Shown: positions 32,002 to 63,947 of the stretch, one piece after another
How positions within the stretch are numbered: the first letter of the stretch is position 1
How the letters are laid out: every line of letters starts with the position of its first letter
From: Costus lasius
Taxonomy: Eukaryota; Streptophyta; Magnoliopsida; Zingiberales; Costaceae
Direction: 5' to 3'
DNA length: 64,000 bases
NCBI GenBank assembly: GCA_027563935.2
Contig: CM050453.2
Span: forward strand, 10,248,001-10,312,000
Translations under genes and position numbers: made by a program
The notes under the pieces: model-generated
The model's input: only the letters and a program-made list of their open reading frames with translations
What the model was told of the DNA's origin: nothing
Databases searched by the model: none

Positions 32002-32744
32002 TGTCACGCCTGGCCTAAAGATTCTCTGACGGAACTCTAGACCGGCGTGAAATCCCTAACCTCAGGTTTCCGAGTGTGATTTTATCCCAATTGGAAAACC
32101 CTAATTCACCATGTACAAAATCACCCCCAAATTGAAGAATTGAACGTAAACCCTATATTTGAATTTACCCGAATTTTGACCGTTAACGCCGCCACGCCGA
32201 ATAAGTTTCTGGTTTGTTGACATCGCTGCACGTTAGCGCCGCGAAATCAAAAATTCGAACCCGATTGTGTTTTGCTTCTCCGATTTTGACCCCAGGTCAA
32301 AATCACCGTCCGATTCGTCGAATCAAACGCTGAAAGCTTCGATTGTATCTTCGTCTTCAACGTGGCACACTCGTCCGCCTTCGCCGCGTCTGCACACGAA
32401 GCTTGTCGATTCATTGCCGGAGGAAGGTGTGCTGGCAAGGGAAGCTTCCCAAACCTCGCCCTCAGCCTCACGTCGATGACCGGAGGCCGTTTGTCGCCGG
32501 GAAAATCGTCGCCGCCATGGAAACTCCAGAAACAGGGGAATAAGTAGAGATAAGGCGAAAGCTTTATTCTACCTTTCCAAGCTACAAAACTCCTTCTGAC
32601 TCTCGCCGCCGACGCTCCCGTCCCTCCCTCGCTGGTGATCCCTTGATCACCGATTACAGTCGCTATAATCCTCTCATCGGCATCTCCCCAGACGCTGGAT
32701 ATTACGGTCGCTCAATGCTCTCCAAGCTTTCTATTAGTGGTGGG
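32002..32744 (+). repeat. LTR-like sequence split by element A (continues at 63948)
   Basis: It begins TGTCACGCCTGG and continues to the insertion site of element A. The sequence resumes at 63948 and runs off the window. Its reverse complement resembles 31160-31959: for example GTAATCGGTGATCAGGGGAT at 31225 against GTAATCGGTGATCAAGGGAT here. Two related LTR-like sequences therefore sit head to head. No protein is encoded. Confidence 0.5.
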
Positions 32745-34180
32745 TGTTAAGTCATTTTTATATAGAGAATTATATGTGATTTTTATTGTTATATCTTCAT
32801 TATTCTAGCATTTACACCTTATTTACATGGATTTATTGCATTATCTTCGGAATCTACACTCGTTGGTGTTCTTGCATCATTTCAGGGAAAAAGCGAGGGA
32901 ATGCGACTTTTTTCAGCGAAATCTGTCTTCTCAGCAAAAAGCACGGTCCACCCGATGACCAGAATCATGCCCTATGCCTTTGGTGTCGCCTTATATCGAT
33001 TTTCCAGATTTTGGCCCTCGACTTATCCACATCAGATAGAAGGTTCCAAAGGGGCAGAAGAGGAATTCGACCAAGGGAGGGGGGACAAAAGGCAAAAGCC
33101 CTATTCACGTAAAGGGATCACAATTATTGGCGGAGGAATTCATTCGTTTACGCACGCACGAAGGAAGACGGGCGGCGACTGAGCAGCGAAAGAAAAGAGG
33201 AAAACCTTCAACGCGAGAGCGTGAAGGAGGCGGACGGACGATCAGAGGAAGAAGAGGGCTCCTCCAGGCGGCTTCTTCTCTCTTTAGGGAGTCTTATTTG
33301 CCATTTCTCATCTATTCTGCCATCTTCGTTGTCCATGGATGCTATGCTAGGAATTGTTTATGCTTTGCTTTGGAACATGAGTATGGCAGCTTAAATCTTG
33401 TTTCAGGGCTAGGGAAAGCCCCTTGAATGTTTTATGCATGTATTGTGATTACATTTTGTAAACCCTAGATTGTCTTACCTTGCCTAGTTGCACCTCTTGA
33501 ATGAAGATTACCTTGTTGCTTTCTTCATATTTTAGATATCCGGTATGGCCGAGAGGCACATCTAGATGTTTGATAACCTAGGCGAGGGTACCTCAATCAT
33601 CGCACGAGAGTGGTTGATTAGGTACGGGTAGTGCATACTATTTCGTGCTCATTGGGTTTATTCGGGTAGACGTACTACGAGGGTAGGCGTCGAACCGTAC
33701 AAACATCTTGTTGCATCACCCGAGAGGGGACAACATGTACAAATGATGAGATGGTATGTACGATCCGGCACTCAATGAGTTTATTCGGTTTTGCGTCCTA
33801 CGATGGTAGACGTTAAATCGGGTAAAGCTCCTAGTCGCAAGTTGCATCGCTCGAGAGAGGACAACATGCGCACTCTTGGATCACCCTAGGATTTTAAAAG
33901 GGAATTGCATGATGTTATTTCATCCATGCATAACACATCGAGGTGGTGGACCCTAGCCCTGATTTCTTGCATCCTTGGATCCTTAGTTGTGCTATTACAT
34001 TGCTTTCCTCTTGAGTTATCTTGCTTTGTTCTTTAGTTTTGATTTATTAACCATTTCACAACCATCAAACGATCGTCTAGCTTGCGATAATCTAATCAGG
34101 TGGTACTTGGTATTTGGTCTCTGTGGGATCGATACATTTATATTACTTCGATAGTCCGTATACTTGCGGAACGGCTATCA
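32745..34180 (+). repeat. 5' LTR of element A
   Basis: It starts TGTTAAGTCATTTTTATATAG and ends CTTGCGGAACGGCTATCA. It aligns end to end with 62507-63942 at the same length. Confidence 0.95.
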
Positions 34181-34186
34181 AGTTTT

Positions 34187-34203
34187 TGGCGCCGTTGCCG
34201 GGG
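34187..34203 (+). other. Primer-binding site of element A (tRNA-Asp type)
   Basis: TGGCGCCGTTGCCGGGG lies 6 bp after the 5' LTR. It is complementary to the 3' end of plant tRNA-Asp(GUC) including CCA, the primer usual for Athila elements. Confidence 0.92.
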
Positions 34204-61527: not shown

Positions 61528-62506
61528 ATTGTGAGTTCTTACACCCACCCCACTTTTGTATGCCTTACTGTTCTTCTCTTTTGGCATCGGGGACGATGCC
61601 TCATTTACCATGTGGGTGGGGTTTTCTAGGCACTTTGTTACTTAAGCATTTTTGTTATAACTAGCCTTTGATATAACTTAGTATCACTGCCAAAAATTTT
61701 ACCATTTGGTATTCACGACTATTGCTTCGTTGTTGAGTATTGTTTTGGAAGTTAGATGACTATCTCCCCATGCTCTAGAACTCTATAATATATTCTTTCT
61801 TGCCTTTAAGCATGTTTTCATTTGTTCTTTGCTGTTAATATGATTCATTCGCACGATCCTGCCCCTCTACTGATTTTTGCCTGCATAGATCTTCTGCATG
61901 TGATTAATTGCCTTGTGGTGGATAACTTAAGGATAGATTCTTGGTAAGTTGAGCTCCCACTTAAATTGTGGGACGCCGCTAGCTTTCTACACCTAATTTG
62001 ACACTAAATGGTTAATCGAGAAAAGATTCTCTAGCAAAGTCTAGAGACACTTCTATAAAAAAAAAAGGAGCACAAAGATCCTCTCAAAAAAAAAGAGGAC
62101 AAAGATCCTCTCAAAAAAAAAAAAAAAAAAGAGGACAAAGATCCTCTCAAAATTCTCCAAATGTTTGTATACCTTCACATCACTTGTAGAAATACCCTGA
62201 TGTTTCCCTTTTTTTCACTTTCATCTCAAACCACTTAGAGGCTTCGAACCTTGTATGGGGAGGAACTATGACGTTGATTAGGAGGTGTAGTAGCTATGTG
62301 TGGAACTCATTTACTTTGGGATGCAATGCTTACCACTTAGATATCCGATAGGAGTCTATCACTTGTGGGATGTTTGACCATTATATGGATCAGTGTTAGC
62401 ATTATCTTAGAGAGGTTTGAACTCAAGTCTTATGAATCATCGTTACAGCTTAGTTTCATCTTATTTTTTGCTTGAAGACAAACAAGAGTTTAAGTCTGGG
62501 GAGATT
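61528..62506 (+). other. 3' untranslated part of element A with polypurine tract
   Basis: It includes three A-rich units with AAAGATCCTCTCAAAA (62070-62150). It ends in TTGAAGACAAACAAGAG and TAAGTCTGGGGAGATT just before the LTR, the Athila pre-LTR context. The likely polypurine tract is at about 62497-62506. Confidence 0.7.
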
Positions 62507-63942
62507 TGTTAAGTCATTTTTATATAGAGAATTATATGTGATTTTTATTGTTATATCTTCATTATTCTAGCATTTACACCTTATTTACATGGATTTATTG
62601 CATTATCTTCGGAATCAACACTCGTTGGTGTTTTTACATCATTTTAGGGAAAAAGCGAGGGAATGCGACTGTTTTCAGCGAAATCTGTCTTCTCAGCAAA
62701 ACGCACGGTCCACCCGATGACCAGAATCACGCCCTGTGGCTTTGGTGTCGCCTTATACCGATTTTCTAAATTTTGGCCCTCGACTTATCCACGTCAGATA
62801 GAAGGTTCCAAAGGGGCAGAAGAGGAATTCGACCAAGGGAGGGGGGGACAAAAGGCAAAAGCCCTATTCACGTAAAGGGATCACGATTATTGGCGGAGGA
62901 ATTCATTCGTTTACGCACGCACGAAGGAAGACGGGCGGCGGCTGAGCAGCGAAAGAAAAGAGGAAAACCTTCAACGCGAGAGCGTGAAGGAGGCGGACGA
63001 ACGATCAGAGGAAGAAGAGGGCTCCTCCAGGCGGCTTCTTCTCTCTTTAGGGAGTCTTATTTGTCATTTCTCATCTATTCTGCCATCTTCGTTGTCCATG
63101 GATGTTATGCTAGGAATTGTTTATGCTTTGCTTTGGAACATGAGTATGGCAGCTTAAATCTTGTTTCAGGGCTAGGGAAAGCCCCTTGAATGTTTTATAC
63201 ATGTATTGTGATTACATTTTTTAAACCCTAGATTGTCTTACTTGCCTAGTTGCACCTCTTGAATGAAGATTACCTTGTTGCTTTCTTCATATTTTAGATA
63301 TCTGGTATGGCCGAGAGGCACATCTAGATGTTTGATAACCTAGGCGATGGTACCTCAATCATCGCACGAGAGTGGTTGATTAGGTATGGGTAGTGCATAC
63401 TATTTCGTGCTCATTGGGTTTGTTCGGGTAGGCGTACTACGAGGGTAGGCGTCAAACCGTACAAATACCTTGTTGCATCACCCGAGAGGGGACAACATGT
63501 ACAAATGATGGGATGGTATGTACGATCCGGCACTCAATGAGTTTATTCGGTTTTGCGTCCTACGACGGTAGACGTTAAATCGGGTAAAGCTCCTAGTCGC
63601 AAGTTGCATCGCTCGAGAGAGGACAACTTGCGCACTCTTGGATCACCCTAGGATTTTAAAAGGGAATTGCATGCTGTTATTTCATCCATGCATAACACAT
63701 CGAGGTGGTAGACCCTAGCCCTGATCTCTTGCATCCTTGGATCCTTAGTTGTGCTATTACATTGCTTTCCTCTTGAGTTATCTTGCTTTGTTCTTTAGTT
63801 TTGATTTATTAACTGTTTCACAACCATCAAACGATCGTCTAGCTTGCGATAATCTAATCAGTCGGTACTTAGTATTTGGTCCCTGTGGGATCGATACATT
63901 TATATTACTTCGATAGTCTGTATACTTGCGGAACGGCTATCA
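62507..63942 (+). repeat. 3' LTR of element A
   Basis: 1436 bp, starting TGTTAAGTCATTTTTATATAG and ending TTGCGGAACGGCTATCA. It is followed by the TSD GTGGG at 63943-63947. Confidence 0.95.
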
Positions 63943-63947
63943 GTGGG

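What the first reader, a model, noticed from the sequence alone, without database searches (positions are those of the whole stretch)
32740..63947. Four-level nest that dates a plastid DNA transfer between two LTR clocks
Element A (TSD gtggg) contains minus-strand element B, whose LTR contains plastid DNA, which contains a chromovirus (TSD caaag). By eye the LTR pairs differ by about 3% (A) and about 1.1% (chromovirus). The plastid insertion must be younger than A and older than the chromovirus, so it has both an upper and a lower age bound without a plastome clock.
Basis: partly seen in the sequence, partly recalled or inferred. Interest (0 to 1): 0.8.

Follow-up and report, generated by a model that had tools for sequence, protein, structure and literature searches.

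The report
Chloroplast DNA sandwiched between retrotransposons
A three-piece chunk of chloroplast DNA landed inside an old jumping gene in a ginger-order plant's chromosome and was then hit by a younger jumping gene, so its arrival has a maximum and a minimum age; each ingredient is ordinary, but the stack offers a check on how such transfers are dated.

Summary
Element A (LTRs 32745-34180/62507-63942, TSD GTGGG) encloses a truncated minus-strand element B. B's LTR is split by plastid DNA, which is split by a full-length chromovirus (44755-53102, TSD CAAAG). LTR pairs differ by K2P 0.0293 (A) and 0.0107 (chromovirus), p=2e-4. In 7 of 7 genomic copies read, B's LTR runs unbroken across the plastid site. 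A plastome contig in the same assembly (C56) shows the empty chromovirus site and that the insert is three rearranged fragments: rpoC2-rpoC1-rpoB, trnC region, ycf3. The insert differs from C56 at 52/11,832 sites (0.44%), far below A's per-lineage value (1.43%, p=1e-7) and indistinguishable from the chromovirus's (0.53%, p=0.48). So the sandwich is right, but the transfer sits at its young edge: well after A, close to the chromovirus. B's 5' half and second LTR are gone, so B's own TSD cannot be checked; C56 is an imperfect reference. It is a complex NUPT made by end-joining: a new member of a known kind, useful mainly as a cross-check of NUPT and LTR clocks.

The parts
32740..32744 (.). Target site duplication of element A, left copy (GTGGG)
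32745..34180 (+). 5' LTR of element A (TG...CA)
34181..34506 (+). Element A: primer binding site (34187) and, read by eye, the start of gag, cut by B
34507..34820 (-). Element B, outer end of its 3' LTR (314 bp); 94.9-97.1% to the 8 copies aligned
34821..44172 (-). Plastid fragment F1: rpoC2 (5' part), rpoC1, rpoB and upstream spacer; plastome contig C56 30482-39833, 39 mismatches in 9348
44173..44754 (+). Plastid fragment F2, first part (C56 29117-29710), ending in the chromovirus TSD CAAAG (44750-44754)
44755..46546 (+). Chromovirus 5' LTR
46788..51332 (+). Chromovirus gag-pol ORF, 1514 aa, with C-terminal chromodomain
51312..53102 (+). Chromovirus 3' LTR
53103..53107 (.). Chromovirus TSD, right copy (CAAAG); single copy in the plastome empty site
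53108..53805 (+). Plastid fragment F2, second part, with trnC-GCA (53622-53692, minus strand); C56 from 29711; BLAST extends it to 53813/30416 through part of the filler
53806..53822 (.). Filler at the F2/F3 junction; repeats sequence at about 53727-53742 (templated end-joining look)
53823..55021 (+). Plastid fragment F3: ycf3 exon 1, intron 1, exon 2, start of intron 2; C56 12348-13545
55022..56278 (-). Element B, rest of the same LTR (about 4 bp of the LTR lost at the plastid insertion site)
56279..57936 (-). Element B, remaining internal region (polypurine tract, ATHILA ORF-1-like ORF 56990-57658); lacks 1.2 kb that copy L009 has, and is cut off on the right
57937..57953 (.). Filler joining truncated B to element A
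57954..62506 (+). Element A, right part of its internal region, with ATHILA ORF-1-like ORF 60436-61527 and polypurine tract
62507..63942 (+). 3' LTR of element A
63943..63947 (.). Target site duplication of element A, right copy (GTGGG)

Best explanation
Four events are stacked. (1) An Athila/Tat-type element A integrated (shown by TSD and LTRs). (2) A second element of that kind, B, integrated into A's gag in the opposite orientation (shown by its LTR end inside A); then, or at some later time, a deletion removed B's 5' half with its LTR and part of A's interior (shown against family copies; its timing is inferred). (3) A break in B's remaining LTR was repaired with three fragments of plastid DNA: 4 bp of microhomology on the left, 1 bp at F1/F2, a copied filler at F2/F3, about 4 bp of target lost. 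This is a complex NUPT made by end-joining (mechanism inferred from the joints). (4) A chromovirus integrated into the trnC-region fragment (shown by TSD and the empty site in the plastome). A came long before the plastid DNA; B's divergence allows any age up to A's; plastid transfer and chromovirus lie close together. With recalled rates of 1.3e-8 to 4.5e-9 per site per year: about 1.1-3.3 My (A), 0.4-1.2 My (chromovirus), 0.34-0.98 My (plastid, from the plastome distance). The nesting itself requires plastid >= chromovirus.
For: TSDs and LTR pairs. B's LTR is unbroken at the plastid site in 7 of 7 copies returned with flanks, out of 39 other matches listed, and in L009. Plastome contig C56 matches all three fragments at 99.0-99.6%, and at 97.3% for the part of F2 with a 13-bp gap, and shows the chromovirus empty site. 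Three stop codons, one in rpoC1 and two in rpoC2, are absent from C56, so the block is a decaying nuclear copy. Differences per site-lineage: A 41/2870, B private 19/1388 (upper limit), plastid 52/11,832, chromovirus 19/3582. The F2/F3 junction is spanned by none of the 49 other matches listed for that stretch (40 of 53 candidates scored). In A-family copies L031, L032, L033 and L035 the sequence before 57954 is interior sequence absent from the window.
Against: The plastid point estimate (0.44%) is a little below the chromovirus's (0.53%), the opposite of what nesting requires, though within error (p=0.48). C56 is an imperfect reference: about 200 codons of its rpoB, between indels at window 41194 and 41850, are in another frame while the window's rpoB is open, so some of the 52 differences may be errors in C56 and the true nuclear divergence lower still. 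B's TSD cannot be checked. No reads were available. The 10-kb query with the F1 stretch never got an answer from the genome search, so other nuclear copies of F1 were not surveyed.
Confidence: 0.92

Rival explanations
1. The nest is an assembly error: plastid contigs joined to retrotransposon sequence.
For: Plastid-derived contigs (C56, C41) are present in the assembly, and no reads could be examined.
Against: The block differs from the plastome contig at 52 sites and carries three private stop codons; its junctions have microhomology, filler and small target loss; the chromovirus TSD sits on a plastome empty site; the window has no N.
Confidence: 0.03
2. The plastid block, perhaps already carrying the chromovirus, was first elsewhere in the nucleus and was copied into B later, or B carried it when it transposed. 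The upper bound would then date the arrival at this site, not the transfer from the plastid.
For: B's second LTR is missing, so whether it also carried plastid DNA cannot be tested.
Against: Of 49 other matches listed for 53103-54960 none spans the F2/F3 junction (40 of 53 candidates scored); no such block is in the 7 B copies read across the site; the plastome comparison independently puts the transfer after A (p=1e-7).
Confidence: 0.04
3. The plastid DNA came by way of the mitochondrial genome, which often carries rearranged plastid pieces (recalled).
For: The three fragments are rearranged relative to the plastome; a mosaic in the mitogenome would look alike.
Against: F1 and F2 are neighbours in the plastome (65 bp apart), the three fragments plus filler account for the whole insert, and no other listed genomic match spans the F2/F3 junction. 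The mitogenome was not identified or searched, so this is not excluded.
Confidence: 0.05
4. The LTR clocks are distorted, by gene conversion or by family-specific mutation rates, so the bracket has no numerical value.
For: 25% (1042 of 4126) of nested pairs in 15 plants show the reverse order (PMC7251063, section 13); here the plastome distance falls slightly below the lower bound.
Against: Neither pair has an unusually long identical run; the plastome distance and GC>AT per GC site fall at or within error of the expected order, and B's private divergence does not exceed A's.
Confidence: 0.1

Closest known systems
Complex (multi-fragment) NUPTs formed by non-homologous end joining (PMC6215612, passages read)
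   Same: Several organelle fragments joined in scrambled order, microhomology or blunt joints, small target loss
   Different: Sits in an LTR and is itself interrupted by a datable element, so it is bracketed in time
Nested LTR retrotransposons used as relative clocks (PMC7251063, abstract and section 13 read)
   Same: Order read from nesting, ages from LTR pairs
   Different: A non-transposon event, a plastid transfer, is the middle layer
NUPT dating by divergence from the plastome (PMC12572781, passages read)
   Same: Substitutions per site against the plastome as relative age
   Different: Here the estimate can be checked against two LTR pairs at the same locus

Membership tests
Complex NUPT | Several plastome segments, not collinear, inside nuclear DNA | tested here: met
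   Three segments of C56 in changed order and orientation, flanked by nuclear elements on the 110-Mb contig C8
Complex NUPT | End-joining junctions (microhomology, filler, small target loss) | tested here: met
Complex NUPT | Decay of the genes relative to the plastome | tested here: met
   Three private stops; 27 of 52 differences are GC>AT
Chromovirus (Ty3/gypsy) | Ty3-type gag-pol with C-terminal chromodomain between LTRs, 5-bp TSD | tested here: met
Chromovirus (Ty3/gypsy) | Phylogenetic placement within a chromovirus clade (CRM, Tekay, Reina, Galadriel) | not tested
   No tree was built
Athila/Tat-type LTR retrotransposon (A and B) | TG...CA LTRs, tRNA PBS TGGCGCC..., ATHILA ORF-1 type ORF before the polypurine tract | tested here: met
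   (the PBS of B is seen only in copies L002 and L007, not in the window); that this PBS marks Athila/Tat is recalled
Athila/Tat-type LTR retrotransposon (A and B) | Autonomous pol with RT and integrase | tested here: inconclusive
   Of 12 ORFs of 180 aa or more in the window 8 were scanned and only the chromovirus ORF matched RT or integrase; B-family copy L009 has no ORF above 354 aa; the families were not surveyed

The most novel reading that the evidence does not exclude
The plastid transfer and the chromovirus insertion happened almost together, long after A, as two outcomes of one episode of genome stress; or, equally compatible, plastid-derived DNA accumulates substitutions more slowly than LTRs at the same locus, so plastome-based NUPT ages are systematically too young.
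Probability: 0.2. Interest if true: 0.5.

Novelty: new member of a known kind. Interest (0 to 1): 0.35.

Why it matters
NUPT ages are usually read from divergence to the plastome (as in PMC12572781, passages), with an assumed nuclear rate. A NUPT sandwiched between two LTR elements has a maximum and a minimum at the same locus, so the two clocks can be tested against each other. Here the plastome estimate lies at the minimum. A genome-wide set of such sandwiches would show whether NUPT clocks run true, slow or fast, and when such transfers happen relative to transposon bursts. One locus alone does not change any picture.

Tried and rejected
Protein-only clock. Before the plastome contig was found I compared the window's rpoB with 119 of the 120 listed homologues (P0001, a fused protein, was dropped) and rpoC1 exon 2 with 118 of 120 (two shorter than 600 aa dropped), and took 3 stops in 207 targets as GC>AT events. 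This gave 0.8-1.45% GC>AT per site. The plastome gave the direct value, 0.62% (27/4358). The protein route was too high: one of the three stops is a transversion, and at least 9 of the 19 unusual rpoB residues must be the species' own, since only 10 substitutions separate the two rpoB stretches.

Viral-contig scan for rpoB relatives: none confirmed. A peptide from 53.1-53.6 kb against Pfam: none; the region proved to be plastome sequence.

A collinear single plastid insert: rejected. Gene conversion between LTRs: no sign in the identical-run test. For LTR pairs all transitions were counted as GC>AT, so those values are upper limits. Two of the 52 plastid mismatches (53806, 53808) lie in the filler.

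Literature: seven answered searches. In their listings I saw no paper that brackets a NUPT between two LTR clocks; the one requiring NUPT, LTR retrotransposon, interrupted, older than and younger than together returned 0 papers. Listings were capped at 10-25 papers, and most subscription papers are not held. Passages of PMC7644871 describe chloroplast and retrotransposon insertions in Allium centromeres without such dating in what I saw; a term search in PMC10789010 found nothing.

Full report
Setting. The window lies on a chromosome-size contig (C8, 110 Mb) of a 1.28-Gb genome in 269 contigs, at 10248001-10312000. The host belongs to the ginger order: the PPR-DYW ORF at 8734-11154 is 79% identical to a Musa acuminata protein, 77% to Zingiber officinale and 93% to a protein of an unnamed contig, and the best rpoB hits are Musa and Zingiberaceae, with Canna at rank 20.

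Element A. Two LTRs of 1436 bp, TG...CA, flanked by GTGGG, differ at 41 of 1435 aligned sites plus 2 indels (K2P 0.0293, SE 0.0046). The PBS is at 34187 and an ATHILA ORF-1-like ORF lies at 60436-61527. All 8 loci returned for 57900-58640 were compared; apart from the window's own, 7 of 7 align with the window from 57954. In L031, L032, L033 and L035 the sequence just before that point is about the same in all four and reads, by eye and recalled motif, as the end of a protease region; L034 is itself rearranged there. In the window that part of A is missing.

Element B. Its LTR starts at 34507 inside A. For the first 314 bp the genome search scored 40 of 2814 candidates, 39 besides the window. 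All 7 copies returned with flanks continue from 34820 over about 4 bases straight to 55022 (55026 in L007) and on into the rest of the LTR; L009 does the same. The plastid block is therefore inside one LTR. Copy L009 shows B's fuller layout: the window keeps B from the 3' LTR to 57933 with a 1.2-kb difference inside, and lacks the rest with the 5' LTR. Private substitutions of the window's B LTR against eight copies are 2/314, 14/784 and 3/290, 19/1388 = 1.4% in all, 0.96 (0.56-1.65) of A's per-lineage value. That is an upper limit for B's age, because closer copies may exist.

The plastid block. Contigs C56 (67.5 kb, partly N) and C41 (19.2 kb) hold plastome sequence; the tRNA genes on C56 fit a large single-copy region (recalled). 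Against C56 the block is three fragments: F1 34821-44172 (reverse; rpoC2 5' part, rpoC1, rpoB), F2 44173-53813 minus the chromovirus (forward; spacer and trnC-GCA), and F3 53823-55021 (forward; ycf3). F1 and F2 are neighbours in the plastome, 65 bp apart, one turned round. Junctions: TGAT shared on the left, G shared at F1/F2, a filler at F2/F3 that repeats sequence about 80 bp upstream, and about 4 bp of LTR lost. This is the signature of end-joining described for complex organelle insertions (PMC6215612, passages). None of the 49 other matches listed for 53103-54960 spans the F2/F3 junction. F1 could not be searched in the genome: that query did not complete.

The chromovirus. The plastome reads GGATACAAAGTATC at the site; the window has CAAAG on both sides of the element. 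The LTRs differ at 19 of 1791 sites plus one indel. The 1514-aa ORF is open. The clade within chromoviruses was not tested.

Clocks. Differences per site and lineage: A 1.43%, B at most 1.4%, plastid 0.44% (52/11,832), chromovirus 0.53%. Plastid versus A: p=1e-7; plastid versus chromovirus: p=0.48. GC>AT per GC site: A at most 2.57%, plastid 0.62%, chromovirus at most 0.66%. Ratios: plastid/A 0.31 (0.20-0.46), plastid/chromovirus 0.83 (0.49-1.40), A/chromovirus 2.69 (1.56-4.64). The nesting requires plastid/chromovirus to be at least 1, so the combined reading is that the plastid DNA arrived shortly before the chromovirus. Against this, the point estimate lies slightly on the wrong side; and since part of C56's rpoB is out of frame where the window's is open, errors in C56 may inflate the 52. 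The three nuclear stops (one in rpoC1, two in rpoC2) are absent from C56.

Times. With recalled substitution rates of 4.5e-9 to 1.3e-8, A is 3.3-1.1 My and the chromovirus 1.2-0.4 My; the same rates give 0.98-0.34 My for the plastid distance (by hand). The absolute numbers are only as good as the rates, and LTR order is reversed in a quarter of nested pairs elsewhere (PMC7251063).

Verdict. The added results are the unbroken LTR copies, the three-fragment structure with its junctions, the plastome empty site, and an independent comparison that confirms the upper bound and places the event at the lower one. It is an ordinary kind of event caught in an unusually datable arrangement.

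Noticed in passing
G000 C9:14472226-14846023: Seven matches of 88-89% to about 400-460 bp of the ycf3 fragment, spaced 56-69 kb apart: perhaps an old plastid insert inside a large repeated segment.
   Followed up: no
G000 C9:7940845-8168550: A second cluster: seven matches of 80-83% to the same 215 bp of the trnC-side spacer within 0.23 Mb.
   Followed up: no
G000 contigs C56 and C41: Plastome sequence left in the nuclear assembly; about 200 codons of rpoB on C56 are out of frame while rpoC2 is open.
   Followed up: partly
window 8734-11154: Open 806-aa PPR-DYW gene, 79% to Musa.
   Followed up: no
window 29763-30892: Two stretches about 75% similar to the flank of B-family copy L008; A may lie next to or inside an older element.
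   Followed up: no
window 26584-26854 and 8184-8538: Two near-palindromic stretches (80% and 75%), possibly foldback or MITE-like; partly similar to each other.
   Followed up: no
window 57441-57505: Perfect 34-bp tandem duplication (1.9 copies) inside B's ORF-1-like ORF.
   Followed up: no
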